In this document: one piece after another, positions 731-12,172 of the stretch
Layout of the letters: each line of letters opens with the position of its first letter
Position numbering within the stretch: the stretch's first letter is position 1
Virus record (IMG/VR): IMGVR_UViG_3300025108_000433
Span: 1-21,824 of that record
Length of the DNA: 21,824 nucleotides
Source of the DNA: a virus
Strand: one strand, 5' to 3'
The notes under the pieces: generated by a model
What the model was told of the DNA's origin: nothing
Databases searched by the model: none
The model's input: the letters and a program-made list of their open reading frames with translations, nothing else
Made by a program: the position numbers and the translations under genes

Positions 731-1476
731 TGCCAGGAGTACCAGATACAACCACTTTCACTTTAGCAGATGTAGTAGCGGCGGTATTGCCGTCATCAAA
801 TGATCTACAAGAGTGCTTCGATGATTCAGTTGACGGGGCTTTTGATTCTACTTATGGACCTGGTAACAAAAGCAACTTACTTCAGTTTAGAAATTACGGC
901 AACGATATAGCTGCCCAAAATTCAGTATATATAGGAAGTGTATGGGGAACGGATGCTTGTGGTGCTACTAGAAACGGTTTAGTTTGGAAAAACAAAAACC
1001 CTAGCTCTGTAGAAAATGGAGATAAGTTTTGGGTTGACAATAATGGATCTCCTGGCAATCCTTTTCCAGGGCAGACTTTTTTAAGCTATACTTGTTTTAC
1101 AGGTTTAAACGCTGTTACTTTTAGTTTATCTAGTTCAGGTATTGCTTCCAACGTAGAATTTTGTAGTTTACCATCTTTAGTTTTAAGCGATGTATATTAC
1201 TATTTAACTGGTAGTACTTTTTCTACACCTGTAGATTACTACTATAGTAGCACTATTGGTGACGCTAGCAACTTGTCTCCAGGAGATATTTTATATACAG
1301 ACGCAGCACTCACAACACCTTTAGGTACACATAGCGGCTATGGATCTAATATTAGGTACTTGCAAAATGGTGCAGCTACTACTACTACTATATGTGGAAC
1401 GAGTTCTACTAGCCATATTAATATTAGTAGCAACAACACTGGTGTTATACAGCGAGTGAACTGCGGTGCTGTATAA
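730..1476 (+). CDS. Tail-associated structural protein of unknown function with DAALTTP motif
   Basis: I cannot assign a named function to this 248-aa protein. Residues 1-58 form a module (ADVVAAV ... LQECFDD ... LLQFRNYGN) that I recall from tail-region proteins of flavobacterial phages. The rest is rich in Ser, Thr, Gly, Tyr and Asn, low in charge and probably beta-structured, as in fibre or baseplate-like proteins. Six Cys (residues 29, 77, 122, 145, 222, 245) are spread along the chain. Residues 189-197, YTDAALTTP, recur as YQDAALTTP in the Cys-rich protein at 17814-18518, so the two may share a fold. No signal peptide or membrane segment is seen. The start overlaps the fibre stop by one base (TAATG), so the two are likely translated together and this could be an adhesin or fibre partner. 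That role is inference. Confidence 0.62.
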   Translation: MPGVPDTTTFTLADVVAAVLPSSNDLQECFDDSVDGAFDSTYGPGNKSNLLQFRNYGNDIAAQNSVYIGSVWGTDACGATRNGLVWKNKNPSSVENGDKFWVDNNGSPGNPFPGQTFLSYTCFTGLNAVTFSLSSSGIASNVEFCSLPSLVLSDVYYYLTGSTFSTPVDYYYSSTIGDASNLSPGDILYTDAALTTPLGTHSGYGSNIRYLQNGAATTTTICGTSSTSHINISSNNTGVIQRVNCGAV

Positions 1477-1478
1477 TG

Positions 1479-1506
1479 AATAAATAAATAAATAAATAAA
1501 TAAATA
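1479..1506. repeat. Tetranucleotide tandem repeat (AATA)x7
   Basis: Seven perfect AATA units lie between the stop at 1474-1476 and the ATG at 1519. The repeat forms most of the untranslated leader of the 125-aa gene. Copy-number change here would alter leader length, not a reading frame, because the upstream gene has already stopped. Confidence 0.9.
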
Positions 1507-1518
1507 AAAACAAAAATT

Positions 1519-2216: not shown

Positions 2217-2444
2217 ATGGATATAAGAAAAATTTCTATAGGTCCTGACTATAAATCTAGTGCCATGCATTATATTATTGGTCAGGACATATTAAAAGGT
2301 AGTTACAATATACATCACATAAGACATGAGGAGTCTAGCGATTCTTTTAAGATATGGATTAAGTCTACGCATAACCAAGAGATTGTCTTGTGGAAGCGAT
2401 TTGTAAATATGCCTGTATCTATTGAATATAACATTAACTTCTAA
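2217..2444 (+). CDS. Small conserved hypothetical phage protein (75 aa)
   Basis: This 75-aa protein has alternating hydrophobic segments (IRKISIGPDYK, then MHYIIGQ, KIWIKS, PVSIEYNINF) that predict a small all-beta fold. The N-terminal MDIRKISIGPDYK and the ending SIEYNINF resemble a short protein I recall from flavobacterial phages, but it has no known role. It follows the coiled-coil gene by 14 bases. Its stop overlaps the next ATG as TAATG, so its product and the GroES-like protein are probably made in a coupled way. No catalytic motif, signal peptide or transmembrane segment is visible. Confidence 0.66.
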   Translation: MDIRKISIGPDYKSSAMHYIIGQDILKGSYNIHHIRHEESSDSFKIWIKSTHNQEIVLWKRFVNMPVSIEYNINF

Positions 2445-3007
2445 TGAAGTCGCCTTATTTATTTATTACTAAGCCTTTAAGTAATAAAAGATATAATAAC
2501 ACTAAGGACATAGGTGGTGTTGATTTTATAACAAGCACATCTGAGGAAAACCATAAAGCATCAAATAGAATTGCTGAAGTTATAGCAACTCCTATTGTTT
2601 ATGATGGTCCTATAAAACCAGGATATAAACTATTAGTACATCATAACGTTTTTAAATTTTACAACGATATGCAGGGTAGGCGTAAGAGTGGTAGAAGTTT
2701 TTTTATGGATGATTTATTTTTTGTTGAGCCTGACCAATTTTATATGTATCATGATGGTGATAAATGGAATGCTAGTGGAAGATATTGTTTTACAAGTCCT
2801 GTTCCTACAGAAGAATATTACTTGTATAAAAATACAAATGAAGAACCTTTAGTTGGAGAAATAAAATACAGTAATGATTACTTACGTTCTCAAGATATAA
2901 ATCCTGGAGATAAGATTTGCTTTAAACCTGAAAGTGAATATGAGTTTGAGGTAGATGGGGAAAAACTTTATAGAATGTTTGACCATCAAATAACAATAAA
3001 ATTATGA
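2444..3007 (+). CDS. Putative tandem GroES-like (Cpn10-fold) phage co-chaperonin
   Basis: The 187-aa protein appears to hold two degenerate GroES-like folds. Residues about 22-103 read DIGGVDFIT, then RIAEVIATPI, then GPIKPGYKLLVHHNVFKFYND and a final FFMDDLFFVEPDQFYMY. Residues about 134-187 read PLVGEIKYSN, then INPGDKICF and VDGEKLYRMFDHQI. Both copies follow the Cpn10 pattern: a strand ending G-x-V, a linker, K/N-PG-D/Y with a beta turn, then a closing strand. Some tailed phages (T4 gp31) encode their own GroES-like partner so that host GroEL can fold the capsid protein. The gene lies just before the terminase genes and upstream of the capsid gene, which fits that role. The remote homology is my reading and not confirmed; a non-chaperone beta protein is the alternative. 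Starts overlap on both sides (TAATG, ATGA). Confidence 0.45.
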   Translation: MKSPYLFITKPLSNKRYNNTKDIGGVDFITSTSEENHKASNRIAEVIATPIVYDGPIKPGYKLLVHHNVFKFYNDMQGRRKSGRSFFMDDLFFVEPDQFYMYHDGDKWNASGRYCFTSPVPTEEYYLYKNTNEEPLVGEIKYSNDYLRSQDINPGDKICFKPESEYEFEVDGEKLYRMFDHQITIKL

Positions 3008-3129: not shown

Positions 3130-3343
3130 GGTTGCTAAAGAAGATATTATAAAGCCAGATCCTGAAGACGAACTAGCTGCTGATAGATTAAAAAATGCTG
3201 CAGCGACAAAAAAGCTAGCTATATTCGATGCGTTTGACATATTGACTAGGTTAGAGAATGAAAAAAATTTAATGGAAATCGAAGAGCGAGGTCCAAGTAA
3301 ACTAGATACTAAACAAGGATTTGCAGAAAGAAGGTCTTCATAA
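3062..3343 (+). CDS. Candidate terminase small subunit (93 aa)
   Basis: The protein is mainly helical and charged. A core (DELAADRLKNAAATKKLAIF, then DAFDILTRLENEKNLMEIEE) resembles a conserved protein that I recall directly upstream of large terminases in Bacteroidota phages. In many tailed phages the gene just before the large terminase encodes the small subunit, which recognises the packaging site on viral DNA and loads the motor; here the link rests on position, size and helical character. No classic helix-turn-helix is obvious, so the DNA-binding role is inference. The ending GFAERRSS looks natural rather than truncated. Its last 23 bases overlap the terminase frame, which points to tight co-expression. 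Confidence 0.5.
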   Translation: MDSKNLKKNIIQAGMRAVEQLIKVAKEDIIKPDPEDELAADRLKNAAATKKLAIFDAFDILTRLENEKNLMEIEERGPSKLDTKQGFAERRSS

Positions 3344-5486
3344 CTTACATACAGTTTTAAATGACTATATACCTAAAGGTGTTCTTAAAAAAAAGAACAG
3401 AAATAAGTCGTGGCAATATGGTTATAATGAACAGTATGATGTTGTTGTGATATCTAAAACAGGACAAGTAGGTGATGTTTACGATATAAATGGATTGAGA
3501 ATAGGTTTACCTGTATCTCCTGAGTCTCTTCAAAGAGACAAAAACAAATGGCATCGTAAAGATTCTCCTAAAGAGTTATTAAAAATACAATCTATATTTC
3601 AATGGAATGAGCAGCCAAATACTTTTAAGGCTAGGTGGGTTGATTATATTGAAGATGAGTTTGATAAAAGAGAGCAAGGTAGTTGGTTTGTAAACAACAA
3701 CAACCCTACATATATAACTGGTTCTCATTATATGTACCTTCAATGGACAAAGATTGATGTAGGGTATCCAGACTTTAGAGAAGCTAACAGAATTTTTTAT
3801 ATTTTTTGGGAGGCTTGTAAAGCAGACCCTAGATGTTTTGGAATGATATACCTAAAGATTAGGCGTTCAGGTTTTTCATATATGGCTTCTGAAGAATGTG
3901 CAAATGTTGCAACAATATCTAAAAATTCTCGTATAGGTATTTTATCTAAGTCAGGTTCTGATGCAAAAAAAATGTTTACAGATAAGGTTGTTCCTATTGT
4001 AAGAAATTACCCTTTCTTTTTTAAGCCTGTTCAAGATGGTATGGATAAACCTAAAACAGAATTAGCCTTTAGAATTCCTGCATCTAAGATTACTAAAAAA
4101 AATATGCATAATGTAGATAATGAAGAGATGGAAGGCTTGGATACTACTATTGACTGGAAAAATACTGACGACAACTCTTATGATGGTGAGAAGTTACTTT
4201 TACTAGCGCATGATGAAAGTGGTAAATGGCTTAAACCAAACAATATACTAAATAATTATCGTGTTACCAAAACCTGTTTAAGATTAGGTAGAAGAATTAT
4301 TGGCAAATGCATGATGGGTTCAACATCAAATGCGTTAAATAAAGGAGGTGAAGAGTTTAAAAAACTTTACTATGATTCTAATCCTAATAACAGAAGTAAC
4401 AATGGTCAAACCAAAAGCGGATTATATTCACTTTTCATCCCAATGGAATGGAATTTTGAAGGTTACATTGATGAGTATGGTATGCCTATGGATGATGTTA
4501 TTGATTACTGGAACAATGAAGTTGAGAGTTTAAAGAATGACGCTGACGCATTAAATGAATTTTATAGACAGTTTCCTAGAACTGAGTCTCACGCATTTAG
4601 AGATGAGAGTAAACAGTCTTTGTTTAACCTTACACGAATATATCAACAGATTGATTACAATGATTCTCTGATAAAGGAGCATCATGTTACTAGAGGTTCT
4701 TTCTCTTGGAAGAATGGAATAAAAGATACAGAGGTAATATGGACTCCAAACACAAGGGGTAGATTTTTAGTTAGTTGGATTCCAAAAAAAAATATGCAGA
4801 ACAGGTATAGGAAAAATCATAGGGGAGAATTTTTTCCTGCAAACGAACATCTTGGTGCTTTTGGTTGTGATAGTTATGATATATCTGGAACAGTAGGAGG
4901 CGGTGCTTCTAATGGTGCTTTGCACGGAATAACAAAGTTTAATATGGATGATGCTCCTAGCAATCAGTTTTTTTTAGAGTATGTAGCTAGACCTCAGACT
5001 GCAGAAATATTTTTTGAAGAAGTATTAATGGCTTGTGTATTTTATGGTATGCCTATATTAGTGGAAAATAATAAACCTCGTTTACTATATCATTTTAAAA
5101 ATAGAGGCTACAGAGGATTTAGTATTAACCGACCAGACAAACTTAAACACAAGCTCTCTAAGACAGAAAAAGAACTTGGGGGTATACCTAACTCAAGTGA
5201 GGCGGTAAAGCAAGCTCACGCAGCTGCTATTGAGTCTCATATTGAATCTCATGTTGGTTTAATAGGTCCTGACGAAATGGGTTATATGCCTTTTAGTAGA
5301 ACCTTAGAGGATTGGGCAAAGTTTGATATAAGCAACAGAACTAAGTTTGATGCGTCTATTAGCTCAGGTTTAGCTATAATGGCTTGCCAAAGACACTTAT
5401 ATCAGCCTGTAAAAAAACAATCAAATATTATTGTTAACTTTGCTAGATACAACAATAAAGGAAGTCGTAGTGAAATAATTAGATAA
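3321..5486 (+). CDS. terL: Terminase large subunit (DNA packaging ATPase/nuclease), TTG start
   Basis: The 721-aa protein drives ATP-powered packaging of viral DNA into the prohead and cuts the concatemer. The N-terminal ATPase has an adenine-side motif (THYITGSHYMYLQW-like, residues about 130-141), a degenerate Walker A (KIRRSGFS, 179-186), a Walker B (KLLLLAHDE, 291-299) and a coupling motif (MMGSTSN, 331-337). The C-terminal RNase-H-like nuclease offers Asp517 (GCDSYD), Glu582 (LVENN) and Asp677 (KFDASISSG) as candidate metal ligands. Length and style match crass-like and marine Bacteroidota phage terminases. No ATG occurs in frame before residue 138, and an in-frame TAG lies at 3303-3305, so TTG 3321 is the best start; it lies inside the upstream gene. 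The portal start follows the stop directly. Confidence 0.88.
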   Translation: MQKEGLHNLHTVLNDYIPKGVLKKKNRNKSWQYGYNEQYDVVVISKTGQVGDVYDINGLRIGLPVSPESLQRDKNKWHRKDSPKELLKIQSIFQWNEQPNTFKARWVDYIEDEFDKREQGSWFVNNNNPTYITGSHYMYLQWTKIDVGYPDFREANRIFYIFWEACKADPRCFGMIYLKIRRSGFSYMASEECANVATISKNSRIGILSKSGSDAKKMFTDKVVPIVRNYPFFFKPVQDGMDKPKTELAFRIPASKITKKNMHNVDNEEMEGLDTTIDWKNTDDNSYDGEKLLLLAHDESGKWLKPNNILNNYRVTKTCLRLGRRIIGKCMMGSTSNALNKGGEEFKKLYYDSNPNNRSNNGQTKSGLYSLFIPMEWNFEGYIDEYGMPMDDVIDYWNNEVESLKNDADALNEFYRQFPRTESHAFRDESKQSLFNLTRIYQQIDYNDSLIKEHHVTRGSFSWKNGIKDTEVIWTPNTRGRFLVSWIPKKNMQNRYRKNHRGEFFPANEHLGAFGCDSYDISGTVGGGASNGALHGITKFNMDDAPSNQFFLEYVARPQTAEIFFEEVLMACVFYGMPILVENNKPRLLYHFKNRGYRGFSINRPDKLKHKLSKTEKELGGIPNSSEAVKQAHAAAIESHIESHVGLIGPDEMGYMPFSRTLEDWAKFDISNRTKFDASISSGLAIMACQRHLYQPVKKQSNIIVNFARYNNKGSRSEIIR

Positions 5487-7922
5487 ATGAAAGATGTAAA
5501 AATAAATGTTTCTTCTGTTGGGTTTCCAAGTCAGTTTGTTTCTGATAGAGAAAAAGCATCAGATGAATTTGGCTTGCAAATAGGTCAAGCTATTCAATAC
5601 GAATGGTTTAAGAAAGATGGAAATCAATGTAGATACTACAATCAATGGAAAGACTTTTACAGACTACGCCTTTATGCTAGAGGTGAGCAATCAGTTGCTA
5701 AATATAAAAACGAACTTGCGGTTGATGGAGATTTAAGTTACTTAAACTTAGATTGGACACCTGTTCCAATTATACCAAAGTTTGTAGATGTTGTTGTTAA
5801 TGGTATGAACGACAGGTTGTTTGATGTTAAGGTATATGCAGAAGATGCAATGTCTCAATCTAAAAGAAGTAAGTATCAAGATATAATACAAGGTCAAGCA
5901 GCGGCAAAAGACATATTGCAAATTGTTCAAAAAGAAACGGGAGCTGATCCCTTTATAATGAATCCCGATGACCTTCCTCAAACTGATGAGGAGTTGAATC
6001 TTTATATGCAGCTTAAATATAAGCCAGCTATAGAAATTGCTGAAGAAGAAGCTATAAATACAATTTTTGCAGAGAACCATTATAATGATGTTAGAAAAAG
6101 AGTTGATTATGATTTAACTGTTTTAGGTATTGGATGTACAAAGCATGAGTTTTTGCCAGGTTCTGGAGTTGAATTAAAATACGTAGACCCTGCAAACATT
6201 GTTTACAGTTATACAGAAGACCCACACTTTAAAGACTGTTTTTATTGGGGAGAAATTAAAACATTACCAATTAATGAGTTAATAAAAATTGACCAATCTT
6301 TAACTTCAAGCGACTTAGAAGAAATATCAAAGTATTCTCAGAGTTGGTACGATTACTATAACGTTGATCAATTTTATGAGAATGATATATTTTATAGAGA
6401 CACTGTTACTTTAATGTATTTTAATTATAAGACTACTAAAAAAGTAGTTTATAAAAAGAAAATATTAGAAAATGGAGGCACAAAGGTTATAGAAAAAGAT
6501 GACCAATTTAATCCGCCTTTAGAAATGATGGAGGAGGGAAGATTTGAGAAAATTGAAAAAACTATAGATGTTTGGTATGATGGTGTTATGGTTATGGGAA
6601 CTAACATATTACTTAAATGGGAGCTTGCTGAAAATATGGTTAGACCTAAATCAGCTCAACAACACGCATTGCCAAACTATGTTGCGGTAGCTCCAAGAAT
6701 GTACAAGGGAGTTATAGAGTCTTTAACTAGGAGAATGATTCCTTTCGCAGACTTAATACAAATTACACACTTAAAACTACAACAAGTTATTTCAAGAGTT
6801 GTCCCCGATGGTGTGTATATTGATGCTGATGGATTAAACGAAGTAGACCTTGGAACAGGTAATGCTTATAATCCTGAAGACGCTTTGCGATTATATTTCC
6901 AAACAGGTTCTGTTATTGGTAGAAGTTATACACAGGATGGAGATTATAATCAAGGAAAGATTCCAATAAAAGAACTACAGTCTAGCTCTGGCGCAAGTAA
7001 AACACAAATGCTTATTGCTAATTATAACCATTATCTAGGAATGATTAGGCAGGTAACAGGATTAAATGAAGCAAGAGATGCATCATCTCCTGACCCTAAT
7101 TCTTTAGTAGGGTTACAAAAACTAGCAGCATTAAATTCAAACGTAGCTACTAGACATATACTAGATGGCTCACTTTATATTTACAGAACATTAGCAGAAG
7201 CCATAACATACAGGGTAGCGGATATACTTCAATATGCAGATTTTAAAGATGACTTTATAAATTCAATTGGTAAGTATAATATTAGTATTCTTGAAGATAT
7301 CAAAGATTTGTATATCTATGACTTTGGTATATTTATTGAAATTGCTCCAGATGAAGAACAGAAAGCTCAGTTAGAATCTAATATACAAATGGCTTTATCT
7401 AAGGGAGATATTAATTTAGAAGATGCTATTGACATACGAGAAATAAAAAACATTAAACTTGCTAACCAATTACTTAAAGTAAAACGTAAAGCATTACAAG
7501 AGCAGCAGCAACAACAAGCTATGCAACAACAAGCTATGCAGGCTCAACAAGCTTTACAATCTCAACAGATGAAGCAGCAAATGGAAATGCAAAAACAACA
7601 ACTTGAGGTAGAAGGCAAGATGAAGTTAAAGCAGGCTGAGATAGCTTTTGAAATTGAGAAGCAAAATAACGAGGCTGTTCTTAAAAGCAAATTAATGGAA
7701 GAAGAATTTAATTACAATTTGCAATTAAGAGGCATGGAGTCTCAGTCATTATCTCAGAGAGAGTCTCAAAGAGAAGATTCTAAAGCTAAAAGAATTAGCC
7801 AAGCGAATACAGAACAATCAAAATTAATACAACAAAGAAAAAATAATTTACCACCAATAAACTTTGAATCTAATGAGGACAGTTTAGATGGGTTTGATTT
7901 AGCTGAATTCAATCCAAGATAG
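5487..7922 (+). CDS. Portal protein
   Basis: The 811-aa protein would form the dodecameric ring at one capsid vertex through which DNA enters and leaves. It sits directly after the terminase (no gap) and before scaffold and capsid genes, the usual place. Features recalled from crass-like portals are YARGEQ (residues 63-68), LNLDWTPVPIIPKFVDVVVN near 86-105, a long helical and beta core with VDPANIVYSYTEDP, and a conserved SSPDPNSLVGLQKLAALNSN (residues about 532-551) crown-side segment. From about residue 668 the chain becomes a Gln/Met/Ala-rich coiled coil of over 100 residues (QEQQQQQAMQQQAMQ onward), a barrel-like extension, then a short acidic tail. A perfect 15-base duplication at 7509-7538 lies in the Q-rich part. 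The length is at the upper end for podoviral portals. Confidence 0.86.
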   Translation: MKDVKINVSSVGFPSQFVSDREKASDEFGLQIGQAIQYEWFKKDGNQCRYYNQWKDFYRLRLYARGEQSVAKYKNELAVDGDLSYLNLDWTPVPIIPKFVDVVVNGMNDRLFDVKVYAEDAMSQSKRSKYQDIIQGQAAAKDILQIVQKETGADPFIMNPDDLPQTDEELNLYMQLKYKPAIEIAEEEAINTIFAENHYNDVRKRVDYDLTVLGIGCTKHEFLPGSGVELKYVDPANIVYSYTEDPHFKDCFYWGEIKTLPINELIKIDQSLTSSDLEEISKYSQSWYDYYNVDQFYENDIFYRDTVTLMYFNYKTTKKVVYKKKILENGGTKVIEKDDQFNPPLEMMEEGRFEKIEKTIDVWYDGVMVMGTNILLKWELAENMVRPKSAQQHALPNYVAVAPRMYKGVIESLTRRMIPFADLIQITHLKLQQVISRVVPDGVYIDADGLNEVDLGTGNAYNPEDALRLYFQTGSVIGRSYTQDGDYNQGKIPIKELQSSSGASKTQMLIANYNHYLGMIRQVTGLNEARDASSPDPNSLVGLQKLAALNSNVATRHILDGSLYIYRTLAEAITYRVADILQYADFKDDFINSIGKYNISILEDIKDLYIYDFGIFIEIAPDEEQKAQLESNIQMALSKGDINLEDAIDIREIKNIKLANQLLKVKRKALQEQQQQQAMQQQAMQAQQALQSQQMKQQMEMQKQQLEVEGKMKLKQAEIAFEIEKQNNEAVLKSKLMEEEFNYNLQLRGMESQSLSQRESQREDSKAKRISQANTEQSKLIQQRKNNLPPINFESNEDSLDGFDLAEFNPR

Positions 7923-7948
7923 GTAAAAAAACGGTATTGAAATTTTAC

Positions 7949-7965
7949 TATCTTTGTAATAATTA
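7949..7965 (+). promoter_or_regulatory. Late promoter-like site (TATCTTTG + GTAATAATTA)
   Basis: TATCTTTG at 7949-7956 fits the Bacteroidota -7 consensus TAnnTTTG and runs into GTAATAATTA. It is 28 bases before the scaffold ATG in a 54-base gap. No good -33 TTG at 17-23 bases upstream is seen; the nearest TTG is only 9 bases away. The same core recurs at 11431 and 19321. Confidence 0.55.
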
Positions 7966-7976
7966 AATTTAATCAT

Positions 7977-9086
7977 ATGGAAATCAAAGTAAAAGAAGTA
8001 ACATTAGGTGAAGAAAAGTCAGTTCAACAAGTAGAACAAGAGCTTTTAGATAAGCACGAAGAAGCACTTAGTGACGACCAGCCAAAAGCTAAAAAGCCAA
8101 AAGCTGAAGAACCAAAAGCTGAAGAACCAAAAGCTGAAGAATCAAAAGCTATTGAGTTAAATGATGAAAACGTTCTGTCATATATTGGTAAAAGATATAA
8201 TAAAGAAATTAGTTCATTTGATGAATTGATGAGTGAGCGAGAAGCGCAGGAAGAGTTACCTGCTGATGTCGCTGCTTACTTTAAATATAAAAAAGATACA
8301 GGTAGAGGAATTGAAGATTTTGTACAATTACAAAAAGACTACAATGAATCTAATCCTGATTCTTTACTTAGGGATTATTTACGTGCCACTGAAGATGGTC
8401 TTGATGAGGAGGATATTGAAACCTTAATGGATGATTATTCTTTTGATGAAGATTTAGATGAAGAGGCAGATGTAAAAAAAATTAAGCTAAAGAAGAAAAA
8501 AGCTATTGCTAAGGCAAAAGATTATTTCAAAGGAATGCAAGAGAAATACAAGCAACCACTTGAGTCAAGAGGATTGCAAGATTCAAATGTATCCAAAGAA
8601 GAAATGGAAGGCTATAAGCAATACATCGCAGAAGCGAAGTCTTATGAAGAAAAGACTGCTAGACAGAAAGAGTTGTATGACTCTAAGACGTTAGAGGTAT
8701 TTACACCTGAGTTCAAAGGTTTTGAATTTAATGTAGGTGAAGAAACAATAACGTTTTCTCCAGGCAGTTTGGAAGATTTAAAAAAGAGCGCATTAAATCC
8801 TGGTAGTTGGGCATCCAAGTATTTAGATGATGATGGTCTTTTAGAAGACTCTAAAGGTTTTCATAGGAGTGTAGCAATTGCAAAGAATCCTGAAAAGTTT
8901 GCTAAGTTCTTTTATGAGCAAGGTAAGGCTAATGCCACAGAAGATGTGATGCGTAAGACAAAAAATATTAATATGTCAGAGCGAAGAACACCTGAAGTGA
9001 CTAGTAAGGGAGGAACACAATTTAAGGCTATAAGCAGCAACAGCAGCAAAGGTCTTAAAATAAGAAGTATTAAAAATAAAAATTAA
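7977..9086 (+). CDS. Capsid scaffold-like protein
   Basis: This 369-aa, highly charged, Lys/Glu/Asp-rich protein lies between portal and capsid genes, where tailed phages place the scaffold that guides capsid assembly and is later removed. Residues about 35-57 are a KAEEP-type repeat in tandem. Then follow a helical region (NVLSYIGKRYNKEISSFDEL), a segment with VAAYFKYKKDTGRGIEDF, acidic runs (DEEDIETLMDDYSFDEDLDE) and a basic run (KKIKLKKKKAIAKAKDYFKG). A more ordered part, FKGFEFNVGEETITFSPGS (residues about 246-264), lies near the C-terminus; a basic end (KIRSIKNKN) may contact capsid protein, as in other scaffolds. No protease motif is evident. It follows a promoter-like site, so scaffold and capsid form their own late unit. 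Function is inferred from order and composition. Confidence 0.68.
   Translation: MEIKVKEVTLGEEKSVQQVEQELLDKHEEALSDDQPKAKKPKAEEPKAEEPKAEESKAIELNDENVLSYIGKRYNKEISSFDELMSEREAQEELPADVAAYFKYKKDTGRGIEDFVQLQKDYNESNPDSLLRDYLRATEDGLDEEDIETLMDDYSFDEDLDEEADVKKIKLKKKKAIAKAKDYFKGMQEKYKQPLESRGLQDSNVSKEEMEGYKQYIAEAKSYEEKTARQKELYDSKTLEVFTPEFKGFEFNVGEETITFSPGSLEDLKKSALNPGSWASKYLDDDGLLEDSKGFHRSVAIAKNPEKFAKFFYEQGKANATEDVMRKTKNINMSERRTPEVTSKGGTQFKAISSNSSKGLKIRSIKNKN
8082..8156. repeat. 15-bp tandem repeat encoding K-A-E-E-P units
   Basis: Three perfect units CCAAAAGCTGAAGAA (8097-8141) are flanked by one diverged unit on each side (8082-8096 and 8142-8156). The unit length is a multiple of three, so copy-number change keeps the scaffold reading frame and only alters the length of a flexible charged linker. 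Confidence 0.9.
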
Positions 9087-9103: not shown

Positions 9104-10561
9104 ATGGCAGGTTCAATCCAAGCAACGCCAGGTTTTGATTTGCAACCAAGTTCGCATCAAACACCTTTGGCATCAAATTACATTACTGACTTCAACTTTT
9201 TGAATCAGTACTTACCAGACACTTACGAAAAAGAATTCGAGCGTTATGGTAACAGAACAATTTCTTCATTCATTAGAATGGTAGGAGCAGAAATGCCTTC
9301 TAACTCAGACCTTATCAAATGGGCAGAGCAAGGAAGATTACACACTAAATATGTTGACTGTGGTACTGCAGCGGTAGTAGCAGGTGGAGAGGTAACATTT
9401 CAAGTAAATGACGCTCTTAACCCAGCAGGATCAACTGTACAACCAGGATCTGGTGCAACAGTTCAAATTGCAATTAGAGTTGGTCAAACACTTGTTGTTG
9501 TAAACAACGATGGATCAGGAGAGTTTAAAGCTATTGTTACAGCAGTAGACCTTGCAAATAGTCAATTTACTGTTGCGTTTTATGATGCTGCAGGATATAC
9601 AGGTGGAACAGGACTAGGAAATGCTGATGCAAGTATTTTCATTTATGGTTCTGAATTTAAGAAAGGAACAAACGGAATGCAAGGTTCACTAGAATCTGAT
9701 GATTTCATTTTTGAAAACACTCCAATTATCATCAAAGATAAGTATGCAGTATCAGGTTCTGATATGGCTCAAATCGGATGGATTGAGGTTACTACTGAAA
9801 ACGGAGCTTCAGGTTACTTATGGTACTTGAAGTCTGAGCATGAAACTCGTTTACGTTACGATGATTACCTAGAGACTGCAATGATTGAAGCAGTACCTGC
9901 AGAAGCTGGTTCTGGTGTGAAAGCACAAACTACTTCTGACCAAGTAGGTGATAAAGGTTCTGAAGGTGTATTCTACGTAGTGCAACAAAGAGGAAACGTT
10001 TGGGCAGGAGGAAATCCTAATGCTTTAACTGACTTTGATGCAATGATTTCACGATTAGACAAGCAAGGTGCCATCGAAGAAAATGTAATTTTCTTAAACA
10101 GAGACTTTGGATTTGACATCGATGATATGTTAGCAGCTCAAAACTCTTATGGAGCAGGTGGAACATCTTATGGTCTTTTTGACAATGACAAAGACATGGC
10201 ATTGAATTTAGGATTTACAGGATTCCGTAGAGGATATGACTTTTACAAGACTGACTGGAAATACTTAAACGACCCAACTATGAGAGGTGGGGTTGATGGT
10301 ACAGGAAGCATTAACGGATTGTTAGTACCTGCAGGCTCTACAACTGTTTATGACCAAGTTCTTGGTAAAAATGCAAAGAGACCGTTCTTACACGTAAGAT
10401 ATAGAGCTTCTGAAACTGAAGACAGACGTTACAAAACTTGGATTACTGGTTCTGCTGGTGGAGCAAGAACATCTGACTTAGATGCAATGGAAGTAAACTT
10501 CTTGAGTGAAAGAGCAATTTGTACTTTAGGTGCAAACAACTTCTTTATCTTTCAAGACTAA
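9104..10561 (+). CDS. Major capsid protein (HK97-type fold expected)
   Basis: The 485-aa product is the probable shell protein. Its N-terminus (FDLQPSSHQTPLASNYITDF, then YLPDTYEKEFERYGNRTISS) and the motif IKWAEQGRLHTKY (residues 71-83) are what I recall from capsid proteins of crass-like and related Bacteroidota phages, which use the HK97 fold. Residues about 84-184 are rich in Gly, Val and Thr and look like a beta-rich inserted domain (VGQTLVVVNNDGSGEFKAIV). The C-terminal half has the helical and P-domain-like stretch ending in GANNFFIFQD. The leader TTTAAAAAATAAAAATTATG is A-rich with no Shine-Dalgarno. By eye it has more C-ending Asn, Phe and Tyr codons than its neighbours, as expected of a very highly expressed gene. 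A strong terminator follows 20 bases after the stop. Confidence 0.88.
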   Translation: MAGSIQATPGFDLQPSSHQTPLASNYITDFNFLNQYLPDTYEKEFERYGNRTISSFIRMVGAEMPSNSDLIKWAEQGRLHTKYVDCGTAAVVAGGEVTFQVNDALNPAGSTVQPGSGATVQIAIRVGQTLVVVNNDGSGEFKAIVTAVDLANSQFTVAFYDAAGYTGGTGLGNADASIFIYGSEFKKGTNGMQGSLESDDFIFENTPIIIKDKYAVSGSDMAQIGWIEVTTENGASGYLWYLKSEHETRLRYDDYLETAMIEAVPAEAGSGVKAQTTSDQVGDKGSEGVFYVVQQRGNVWAGGNPNALTDFDAMISRLDKQGAIEENVIFLNRDFGFDIDDMLAAQNSYGAGGTSYGLFDNDKDMALNLGFTGFRRGYDFYKTDWKYLNDPTMRGGVDGTGSINGLLVPAGSTTVYDQVLGKNAKRPFLHVRYRASETEDRRYKTWITGSAGGARTSDLDAMEVNFLSERAICTLGANNFFIFQD

Positions 10562-10576
10562 GAATACTAACCAAAG

Positions 10577-10608
10577 AAAAGGGGGTCTCTTCAAAGAGAC
10601 TCCTTTTT
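10577..10608 (+). terminator. Intrinsic terminator after the capsid gene
   Basis: Left arm GGGGTCTCT (10582-10590), loop TCAA, right arm AGAGACTCC (10595-10603), followed by T5 (10604-10608); an A run before the stem can pair with the T run and extend it. It lies right after the capsid stop and before the next gene, and would limit read-through. Confidence 0.85.
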
Positions 10609-10632
10609 ATTAATTAAATTAAATTATATCAA

Positions 10633-11379
10633 ATGAAAACTACAATACAAAGAGTAGACAAGGTCTACAAACTAACAAGGAACGCAGCACCTTTATCCTT
10701 CATGCTTGCAACAAGACACACAAGAAGATTTCCATTACTTTGGGTAGACCCAGAGACAGGTGTAAACAGAGAACTACGTTACGCTAGAAACCAATCTACA
10801 CCCTTTGTAGATGAGCAGGATGGGAATGCAATTATAGAGCCTGTTGTTTTTGAGGATGGTTTTTTAAGGGTTTCTAAAAACAATCAAGTATTACAAAAAT
10901 TTTTAGATGTACACCCACATAATGGTGTTAAATTTAAAGAGTTGGATAAATCTAAAGATGCTCAAGAAATTGTTGAAAACATAAATGTAGAGCTTGACGC
11001 AATGTTAGAAGCTCGTTCTTTATCTATACAACAACTAGAGACTCTAACAAGAGTATTGTTTTCAAAAGACCCTTCTAGAATTAGTACAGACGAAATGAAA
11101 AGAGACATCTTAGTTTACGCTAAGAGAGAACCAAGAGAGTTTATGTCTTTAGTAAATGACCCTGTATTAAAACTACAAGCAACTGTACATAAATTGTTTG
11201 AGGAAGGTTTTATAAAATATAGAAATAAAAACAAAGAGGTTTGGTTTAATACTAAAACTAATAAAACAAGAATGTGTACAATCCCTTACGGAGAAGACCC
11301 AATCTATATAGTGTCCTCTTATTTCCAAACTGACGATGGAGTCGAGTCATTAAAAATACTAGAACAACTACTTGATTAG
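10633..11379 (+). CDS. Conserved phage protein of unknown function, possible winged-helix C-terminus
   Basis: I recall this 248-aa protein type from many marine and Bacteroidota phages near the capsid gene, but know of no function. Conserved-looking parts are residues 20-55 (PLSFMLATRHTRRFPLLW, then NRELRYARNQ), 73-78, and NNQVLQKFLDVHPHNGVKF (83-101), a short helical block. Residues about 110-165 are helical. Residues about 165-215 (DPVLKLQATVHKLFEEGF, then IKYRNKNKEVWFNTKTNK) look like a helix-helix-wing unit with basic residues in the wing, so nucleic-acid binding is possible but unproven. It is flanked by terminators and no promoter-like -7 site is seen in the 71-base gap upstream, so it may depend on read-through from the capsid unit. 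Alternatives are a head-associated or morphogenesis protein. Confidence 0.68.
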   Translation: MKTTIQRVDKVYKLTRNAAPLSFMLATRHTRRFPLLWVDPETGVNRELRYARNQSTPFVDEQDGNAIIEPVVFEDGFLRVSKNNQVLQKFLDVHPHNGVKFKELDKSKDAQEIVENINVELDAMLEARSLSIQQLETLTRVLFSKDPSRISTDEMKRDILVYAKREPREFMSLVNDPVLKLQATVHKLFEEGFIKYRNKNKEVWFNTKTNKTRMCTIPYGEDPIYIVSSYFQTDDGVESLKILEQLLD

Positions 11380-11392
11380 TAGTCATAAATTC

Positions 11393-11427
11393 AAAGAGGG
11401 GTCTATTTTTAGACCTCTTTTTTTTTT
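11393..11427 (+). terminator. Intrinsic terminator after the 248-aa gene
   Basis: GGTCTA (11400-11405) pairs with TAGACC (11410-11415) around a T4 loop; AAAGA and TCTTT extend the stem across a two-G bulge, and a run of ten T follows (11418-11427). It lies immediately upstream of the promoter-like site at 11431, so it separates two units. Confidence 0.82.
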
Positions 11428-11430
11428 AAC

Positions 11431-11453
11431 TATCTTTGTGTAAATAATAGTTA
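11431..11453 (+). promoter_or_regulatory. Late promoter-like site (TATCTTTG)
   Basis: TATCTTTG at 11431-11438 fits the Bacteroidota -7 consensus and is followed by GTAAATAATAGTTA, similar to the sequence after the site at 7949. It begins 25 bases before the ATG at 11456 and starts directly after the terminator, so it probably restarts transcription of the neck/tail genes. No clear -33 element is present. Confidence 0.55.
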
Positions 11454-11455
11454 GG

Positions 11456-12172
11456 ATGATAAACGATATTAGAAATACAGTTTTAGCCGTATTAAATAAA
11501 AACAACTATGGCTACATCTCTCCACAAGATTTTAATCTATATGCACAACAAGCTCAAATGGATTTGTTTGAGGATTATTTTTATGCATACAATTATCAGG
11601 TAAATAAAGAGAATCAGAGAACATCAGGTACAGGATACGCAGATATAAAAAAAGGATATTCAGAGGTTATTGATTTTTTTTCAGTAACAAGTTCATTAAC
11701 TGCAAACGGAGCAATAACAGATGGATTTTTTCTTCCTTCTGTAGCAACTACAGGTTTTGATTATTACTTAATAAATAAAATATTTATTGGAAACGTTGAA
11801 GCGGAAAGAATTGAGCAAAGTAAAATATTATTACTCAACTCTTCTCTATTAACTTCTCCATCCGATTTGTTTCCAGCCTACACAACTCAAGGTCTTACAG
11901 CTACGATATATCCATCTCCTAAAAGCACTCCTCAGTGTCAATACATACGTTATCCAAAACCTCCAAAATGGACTTATGTAGATTTAGGATCGGGAAGTGA
12001 GCCTGTGTTTGACCAAACTCAACCTGACTATCAGGACTTTGAATTGTTTCCAGACGATGCAACGGATTTAACAATGAAAATATTAAAATACGCAGGAGTG
12101 TCAATTAGAGAGGCATCAGTTGTTCAATATGCAGGAGCTGAACAAGCTACTGAAAATAATAGTGAAAAATAA
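11456..12172 (+). CDS. Ring / head-tail connector-like structural protein (238 aa)
   Basis: The start INDIRNTVLAVLNKNNYGYISP, split as a short helix and a PQDFNLYAQQAQMDLFEDYF helix, is a pattern I recall from a small structural protein lying after the capsid gene in crass-like and flavobacterial phages; in crass001 such proteins build the rings under the portal. The central part is beta-rich and the C-terminus (DDATDLTMKILKYAGVSIRE, residues about 203-222) is helical, as in podoviral adaptor proteins. It is the first gene of the neck/tail unit, with a gap of two bases to the next gene, which looks like a second ring protein. No enzyme motif is seen. The exact ring number cannot be told from sequence alone. 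Confidence 0.58.
   Translation: MINDIRNTVLAVLNKNNYGYISPQDFNLYAQQAQMDLFEDYFYAYNYQVNKENQRTSGTGYADIKKGYSEVIDFFSVTSSLTANGAITDGFFLPSVATTGFDYYLINKIFIGNVEAERIEQSKILLLNSSLLTSPSDLFPAYTTQGLTATIYPSPKSTPQCQYIRYPKPPKWTYVDLGSGSEPVFDQTQPDYQDFELFPDDATDLTMKILKYAGVSIREASVVQYAGAEQATENNSEK

What the first reader, a model, noticed from the sequence alone, without database searches (positions are those of the whole stretch)
10577..11427. A single conserved gene isolated between two intrinsic terminators
The 248-aa gene is bracketed by a strong hairpin-T terminator on each side, in a genome where neighbours are otherwise packed with gaps of 0-14 bases. No TAnnTTTG site is seen in its leader. It seems to be expressed by read-through from the capsid unit at low level. 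The C-terminus may be a winged helix, so a dosage-sensitive or regulatory role is worth testing.
Basis: partly seen in the sequence, partly recalled or inferred. Interest (0 to 1): 0.5.

Follow-up and report, generated by a model that had tools for sequence, protein, structure and literature searches.

The report
Insulated gene beside phage capsid gene
In a group of phages of Bacteroidetes-type bacteria, a conserved but uncharacterised gene sits next to the capsid gene, usually walled off by a transcription stop signal on each side; it is the counterpart of an uncharacterised gene of gut crAss phages and probably makes a low-dose DNA-handling protein for building or filling the virus head.

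Summary
The 248-aa gene (10633-11379) lies between two strong intrinsic terminators (10577-10608, -17.6 kcal/mol; 11393-11422, -15.8), the only intergenic ones called on the window's + strand. No TAnnTTTG lies in its leader; one (11431) follows the second terminator. The layout is conserved: of 225 distinct loci, 216 have an upstream and 201 a downstream terminator (dinucleotide shuffles 19 and 22). Hairpin sequences vary while place and structure persist. The gene follows the capsid gene in 75 of 75 testable capsid-anchored loci. 43 of 225 have their own TAnnTTTG, so insulation, not read-through, is the shared theme.

It is the orthologue of Crassvirales crAss001 gp33 (profile-profile E 4e-9, same place after the capsid gene and a hairpin), which has no second terminator. 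phi18:3 and phi14:2 records carry no MS/MS note for it, though neighbours do. The C-terminal domain (about 177-248) is predicted to resemble the RecA C-terminal, dsDNA-binding domain rather than a winged helix. Most likely a low-copy, non-virion DNA-binding factor of head assembly or packaging, fed here by read-through (inferred). Capsid-terminator-read-through is known from T7; double insulation is a new variant.

The parts
9104..10561 (+). major capsid protein gene
   Evidence: phrog_13704 virion structural protein E 7e-99; the homologue in Calle_1 is annotated major capsid protein
10577..10608 (+). intrinsic terminator 1, directly after the capsid gene
   Evidence: -17.6 kcal/mol hairpin with T tract; 0 of 100 mononucleotide shuffles of the gap reach it; 216 of 225 distinct loci have one
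10609..10632 (+). A/T-rich leader without TAnnTTTG
   Evidence: similar leaders in many close relatives
10633..11379 (+). 248-aa gene, orthologue of Crassvirales crAss001 gp33
   Evidence: phrog_34748 E 2e-24, unknown function; profile-profile E 4.3e-9 to the crAss gp33 family; Foldseek E 1.6e-6 to a phi14:2 protein
11161..11376 (+). C-terminal domain, residues 177-248, RecA-C-terminal-domain-like (predicted)
   Evidence: AlphaFold2 model; VIA-align Z 7.6, rmsd 1.6 A over 56 residues to RecA 269-324; best unrelated row Z 4.1
11393..11422 (+). intrinsic terminator 2
   Evidence: -15.8 kcal/mol with T run; 201 of 225 distinct loci have one
11431..11438 (+).
   Evidence: a TAnnTTTG follows the downstream terminator in 177 of the 207 loci that have one at -6 kcal/mol
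11456..12172 (+). virion structural protein in the place held by ring protein gp34 in crAss001
   Evidence: phrog_14543 E 2e-38; homology to gp34 itself not tested
7949..7956 (+). TATCTTTG before the putative scaffold gene; possible start of the capsid unit
   Evidence: gap 7923-7976

Best explanation
It is a core gene of these Bacteroidetes podoviruses, orthologous to crAss001 gp33, kept as a transcription unit of its own between the capsid unit and the tail unit. Terminator 1 ends most transcripts right after the capsid gene, so the capsid protein is made in excess. In this clade the gene has no recognisable promoter and is most likely transcribed by the fraction of polymerases that read through terminator 1. 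Terminator 2 ends that transcript, and the TATCTTTG promoter at 11431 restarts transcription for the tail genes, so the tail genes do not depend on the gene's level. In some sister clades a promoter before the gene replaces read-through. The protein is probably not a lasting part of the virion: a low-copy, non-structural late factor whose RecA-like C-terminal domain contacts double-stranded DNA during head assembly or DNA packaging, by position a role like lambda gpFI (recalled). Shown here: the hairpins, their conservation, the neighbours, the orthology. Predicted: the fold. Inferred: termination, read-through, low dose, DNA binding, packaging role.
For: Both hairpins are conserved in place with differing sequences (130 distinct upstream in 216, 143 distinct downstream in 207), also in named Pervagoviridae, Pachyviridae, Elemovirus, Panino and MW202828 records (12 loci read by eye; 225 loci). 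The gene is downstream of the capsid gene in 75 of 75 testable capsid-anchored loci, with a terminator after the capsid gene in 73 of 75. It lies directly after the capsid gene in 8 of 8 crAss-like genomes examined, each with a G+C hairpin in that gap. Homology: A2 against A3 E 4.3e-9, against crAss001 gp33 alone E 8.3e-5; the ten Foldseek hits at E <= 0.001 include a phi14:2 protein of g090's length, two named CrAss-like viruses and an Azobacteroides phage. No MS/MS note for this gene in the phi18:3 and phi14:2 records although several neighbours have one; gp33 is not named in the main texts of the crAss001 structure and isolation papers (word searches). RecA C-terminal domain from two methods: VIA-align, and the only PDB sequence hit at E <= 10 of the crAss profile, RecA 271-333, E 0.94; four Suoliviridae orthologues are also annotated RecA. 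RecA C-terminal domains bind dsDNA (PMC4666392, passages). T7 precedent: the only phage-RNAP terminator follows capsid gene 10, and genes 11 and 12 are expressed only by read-through (PMC5592923, passages).
Against: No transcript or protein data on this gene were seen. 43 of 225 loci have their own TAnnTTTG, so low dose by read-through is not universal. The net charge of the C-terminal domain is -1 here (median 0, range -5 to +4 over 88 sequences) and of the whole protein 0 (median -4); only the hairpin is basic (+6 here, median +4, minimum 0), so DNA binding is uncertain. Foldseek against the PDB gave nothing at E <= 0.001; the RecA sequence hit is not significant; the A2 profile itself hit only three coiled-coil sequences (E 0.34 and 3.3); the VIA-align tool warns that Z under 8 may be a common arrangement. 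pTM is 0.51. phi14:2 g090 alone aligns only at E 0.013. Lack of an MS/MS note does not prove absence from the virion. Packaging is inferred from position and domain only.
Confidence: 0.45

Rival explanations
1. A minor virion component (for example a few copies inside the head or at the portal vertex) that gel and MS methods missed; the terminators set its low copy number.
For: Lies among virion genes and is conserved with them. Virion proteins can be missed: the crAss001 isolation paper reports gp43 as not detected (passage), yet gp43 is ring protein R1 in the later structure (passage).
Against: No MS/MS note in the phi18:3 or phi14:2 records; gp33 is not named in the main text of the crAss001 atlas.
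Confidence: 0.25
2. A late transcription regulator: a DNA-binding protein that tunes the capsid or tail unit or the switch between them, hence isolated and dosage-sensitive.
For: Possible DNA-binding C-terminal domain, isolation by terminators, a promoter element right beside it.
Against: In the 8 crAss-like genomes examined it is not isolated downstream: the next gene follows within 1-8 bases or overlaps by a base, so isolation is not tied to its function; no significant winged-helix match; no operator was sought.
Confidence: 0.2
3. For expression: the gene is not fed by read-through but by a promoter that lacks the TAnnTTTG consensus, perhaps a diverged element in the conserved A/T-rich leader.
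For: The leader is similar across many close relatives; Panino and phi38:1 leaders hold TATTTTTA and TAACTTTA, one letter off the consensus; sister clades have TAnnTTTG there.
Against: The window leader has no copy even with one mismatch; the leader also resembles the A/T-rich leader of the gene at 7977, which has its own TATCTTTG, so it may serve translation.
Confidence: 0.35
4. A moron-like cargo gene recently inserted between capsid and tail genes with its own signals.
For: Single gene with flanking signals between structural genes; other genes are inserted at the same borders.
Against: Present in 75 of 75 testable capsid-anchored loci and in the 8 crAss-like genomes examined: a core gene, not cargo.
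Confidence: 0.02

Closest known systems
Crassvirales crAss001 gp33 (Steigviridae; orthologues labelled 'RecA protein' in four Suoliviridae records)
   Same: Homologous over the C-terminal 150 residues; directly after the capsid gene and a hairpin; no MS/MS note in phi14:2
   Different: In the 8 crAss-like genomes examined the next gene follows within 8 bases or overlaps, without second terminator or promoter; N-terminal parts did not align in the profile comparison
T7 terminator Tphi after capsid gene 10 with read-through genes 11 and 12
   Same: Terminator directly after the capsid gene, downstream gene thought to be fed by read-through
   Different: Different polymerase; homology of the genes not tested; here a second terminator plus promoter closes the unit after one gene
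RecA C-terminal dsDNA-binding domain
   Same: alpha-beta3-alpha2 order in the model, Z 7.6, rmsd 1.6 A over 56 residues
   Different: Protein too short for and without a detected RecA ATPase core; identity 5-12%; lysine cluster not established
lambda gpFI (recalled, no call)
   Same: Small non-virion factor encoded right after the capsid gene that acts in packaging
   Different: No homology tested; comparison is by position only

Membership tests
Crassvirales gp33 family | gene directly after the capsid gene | tested here: met
   window order; crAss001, phi14:2 and 6 other crAss-like genomes
Crassvirales gp33 family | sequence homology | tested here: met
   hhalign A2-A3 E 4.3e-9, prob 96, 151 columns; gp33 alone E 8.3e-5, prob 61; phi14:2 g090 alone only E 0.013
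Crassvirales gp33 family | G+C hairpin between capsid gene and this gene | tested here: met
   8 of 8 crAss-like gaps and the window, 0 of 100 mononucleotide shuffles each; only 2-3 T in the next 8 bases in cr53_1, cr10_1, cr55_1 and phi14:2
Crassvirales gp33 family | directly joined to the downstream gene | tested here: not met
   76-base gap with terminator and promoter element here; 1-8 bases or a one-base overlap in the crAss-like genomes
RecA C-terminal domain fold | alpha-beta3-alpha2 domain | tested here: met
   order H177-191 E194-197 E202-205 E213-216 H223-231 H234-247 in the predicted model; 43 RecA rows at Z 6.0-7.6. That this order defines the fold is recalled
RecA C-terminal domain fold | dsDNA-binding lysine cluster | tested here: inconclusive
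   hairpin net charge +6 in window, median +4, minimum 0 over 88 sequences; residues not mapped one to one
RecA recombinase | ATPase core | tested here: not met
   248 aa; no RecA family among Pfam matches of the protein or of the 88 relatives
   CRP/MarR rows only at Foldseek E 0.25 or worse; best structural match is the RecA C-terminal domain
T7 Tphi-type capsid terminator | terminator right after capsid gene | tested here: met
   sequence signal only
T7 Tphi-type capsid terminator | downstream gene expressed only by read-through | not testable with these tools
   needs RNA-end mapping
moron | absent from close relatives | tested here: not met
   75 of 75 testable capsid-anchored loci have the gene

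The most novel reading that the evidence does not exclude
The gp33 family is a DNA-packaging or head-assembly factor shared by Crassvirales and the flavophage podoviruses, built on a RecA-type dsDNA-binding domain without the recombinase, whose dose is set by a capsid terminator; the flavophage lineage added a second terminator and promoter, making a conserved one-gene dosage unit.
Probability: 0.3. Interest if true: 0.65.

Novelty: new variant of a known kind. Interest (0 to 1): 0.5.

Why it matters
[quoted passage not shown] This points to one core, uncharacterised gene beside the capsid gene that can be tested in cultured phages (phi38:1, phi14:2, crAss001), and gives a comparative case of a gene insulated by terminators whose sequence turns over while their place is kept. 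It also flags 'RecA' labels in gut crAss genomes as likely misannotations.

Tried and rejected
Moron or recent cargo: rejected, core gene. Winged helix: Foldseek PDB hits to CRP/MarR are not significant. Pfam and PHROGs give no function. A PDB sequence search with the protein found nothing, with A2 only three coiled-coil sequences. A second structure job on residues 121-248 alone, without alignment, gave pLDDT 63.9 with a poor C-terminus and was not used.

Terminator detectors: a perfect-stem detector on 123 distinct loci gave 98 of 120 up and 108 of 122 down (random windows 38 of 1230, mononucleotide shuffles 7 of 738). A first folding detector was too strict and gave 155 up, 128 down and 87 both of 225; its printed misses showed clear hairpins with T runs, so I relaxed stem ends and T tract and re-ran with controls at the same settings. 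The relaxed detector was thus chosen after seeing the misses. At -6 kcal/mol it gives 216 up and 207 down against 44 and 73 of 225 shuffles; at -8, 216 and 201 against 19 and 22, both together 192 of 225. 342 places of the gene were located, window included and some contigs fetched more than once; 21 lacked a start, stop or flank, 96 were duplicates, 225 were kept, window included. Distinct means not identical, so near copies remain and the 225 are not independent. Of 9 loci without upstream hairpin, 8 have more than 350 bases between capsid gene and this gene and one (148 bases) has a misplaced start; of 18 without a downstream one, 14 have more than 280 bases before the next structural gene, one has 67, and in 3 that gene was not placed. 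On the protein tree the fewest changes are 3 for own promoter, 7 for upstream and 15 for downstream terminator.

The capsid-anchored test kept the 80 best of 599 matches, many on contigs already seen and close to the window, so it is not fully independent; 5 of 80 lacked room. Genome contigs gave 5 MAG contigs only. Papers: searches listed none that I recognised as about this gene; the library lacks most subscription papers, so the phi38:1 and phi14:2 transcript and proteome originals were not read. The methylation proteomics paper does not name gp094 in its main text and appears to number genes differently (passages); no supplements were read. PMC8776804 says one hypothetical core protein is shared by Pachyviridae and Pervagoviridae (passage); I did not verify that it is this one.

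Full report
What is there. The window is a 21,824-base virus record with the head and tail genes of a podovirus: a terminase-like ORF (3321-5486), portal (5487-7922), a probable scaffold gene (7977-9086), capsid (9104-10561), the 248-aa gene (10633-11379), and structural genes from 11456 on. The two + strand terminators at 10577-10608 and 11393-11422 are the only intergenic ones found at -8 kcal/mol or better with a T tract. No TAnnTTTG, even with one mismatch, lies in the leader; TATCTTTG sites lie at 7949, before the scaffold-capsid unit, and at 11431, before the tail unit. TAnnTTTG as such is not enriched in the window. In the complete relative MW202828, of 28 gaps of 25 bases or more after a gene, six gave a hit; the two around this gene (-19.0 and -19.7) and one after 416-517 (-19.0) are the strongest, the other three are -9.7 to -11.6.

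Conservation of the layout. 342 places of the gene, window included, were located in named phages and IMG/VR contigs; 225 distinct ones had enough flanking DNA. With one detector and matched controls, an upstream terminator is found in 216 of 225 and a downstream one in 201 of 225 at -8 kcal/mol (dinucleotide shuffles 19 and 22; inside the gene 20), both in 192. Two stricter detectors gave fewer (see Tried and rejected). There are 130 distinct upstream hairpins among 216 and 143 distinct downstream among 207: sequence turns over while the signal stays. The reverse strand of the upstream region also scores at -8 in 155 of 225, so that hairpin may act in both directions. The capsid gene lies within 150 bases upstream in 198 of 222 and the next structural gene within 150 bases downstream in 140 of 216; both in 118 of the 213 with both in hand; elsewhere extra DNA, often with genes, lies between.

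Is it a core gene? Starting from the capsid protein instead (80 best loci, 75 with room), the gene is present downstream in 75 of 75, within 150 bases in 70, and a terminator follows the capsid gene in 73; the other two have a hairpin with a poor T tract. In the phage collection the gene (E <= 0.1) and the capsid protein (E <= 0.001) each hit 85 records with the same tallies by genus name; records were not matched one by one.

Own promoter or read-through. 43 of 225 distinct loci have a TAnnTTTG 18-32 bases before the start codon, at nearly fixed spacing within groups, 37 of them after a detected upstream terminator; the fewest changes on the protein tree are 3 over 223 rows. None of the 103 distinct loci from the two searches centred on the window protein and A1 has one (L004-L084 and L094-L169). 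After the downstream terminator a TAnnTTTG follows in 177 of 207. So the stable feature is insulation; the way of firing differs. T7 offers the precedent for read-through: its single phage-RNAP terminator follows capsid gene 10, and genes 11 and 12 are made only by read-through (PMC5592923, passages).

Identity. PHROG matches are of unknown function. The AlphaFold2 model from an 88-sequence alignment of window and IMG/VR proteins has mean pLDDT 86.6 and pTM 0.51, so local structure is credible but the packing of the parts is not. Foldseek against viral models gives ten hits at E <= 0.001, among them Gundel_1, phi14:2 S0A085 (294 aa, the length of g090, which I take it to be; accession link not verified), Azobacteroides phage and two viruses named CrAss-like. 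phi14:2 g090 and crAss001 gp33 sit directly after the capsid gene; the gene after gp33 is ring protein gp34. Profile comparison: E 8.3e-5 against crAss001 gp33 alone, 0.013 against g090 alone, 4.3e-9 against an eight-member crAss profile, over the C-terminal 150 residues; the N-terminal parts did not align. All eight crAss-like genomes examined have a G+C hairpin after the capsid gene that 0 of 100 mononucleotide shuffles reach, four of them with a weak T tract, and the next gene follows within 1-8 bases or overlaps by a base. Among the genomes examined, the second terminator and promoter are therefore found only in the flavophage group.

What the protein may do. VIA-align places residues 177-248 on the RecA C-terminal domain (Z 7.6, rmsd 1.6 A, 56 residues; 43 RecA rows, next unrelated row Z 4.1); the tool warns that Z under 8 can be a common arrangement. 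The crAss profile's only PDB sequence hit at E <= 10 is the same part of a RecA (E 0.94), and annotators of four Suoliviridae genomes called the 250-aa orthologue RecA. RecA C-terminal domains bind dsDNA (PMC4666392, passages). Against this: the charge of the domain is near zero and only the hairpin is basic; Foldseek against the PDB found nothing significant. In the phi18:3 stretch read, the MS/MS note is on gp099, gp104, gp112, gp113 and gp114 but not on gp103 (scaffold position) or gp105 (this gene); in phi14:2 it is on g089, g091 and g093 but not on g090 or g092. The word gp33 does not occur in the main text held of the crAss001 atlas or isolation paper; tables outside that text and supplements were not read. 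A non-virion, DNA-binding factor of head assembly or packaging is the reading I favour (about 0.45), ahead of a minor virion protein and a late regulator.

Verdict. Real and conserved; no description of it came up in the papers searched; built from known elements: a new variant of the capsid-terminator arrangement around an uncharacterised core gene.

Noticed in passing
L345, L346, L347, L348 (Suoliviridae crAss genomes): The 250-aa orthologue is labelled RecA; it is far shorter than RecA and resembles only its C-terminal domain, so the label is probably wrong.
   Followed up: partly
gap between this gene and the next structural gene, e.g. L112, L132, L133, L209, L229, L087: Insertion hot spot: 76 of 216 loci hold more than 150 bases there; several inserted genes come after a TAnnTTTG and a recurrent leader like TTAACCCATTAATTTTTT before the ATG.
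   Followed up: no
window 2444-3007: GroES-like co-chaperonin (phrog_13932, E 3e-16) upstream of the terminase.
   Followed up: no
window 7977-9086: Probable scaffold gene in the same position as crAss001 gp31 and phi14:2 g092; weak sub-threshold Pfam hit to crAss cargo protein 1 (E 0.029); the positional counterparts have no MS/MS note in phi18:3 or phi14:2.
   Followed up: no
window 1476-1508: Run of AATA tetranucleotide repeats between two genes.
   Followed up: no
L432-L436: The five relatives in the bacterial genome collection are all MAG contigs, two of them in an Aliivibrio bin although the known relatives infect Bacteroidetes; probably binned phage contigs.
   Followed up: no
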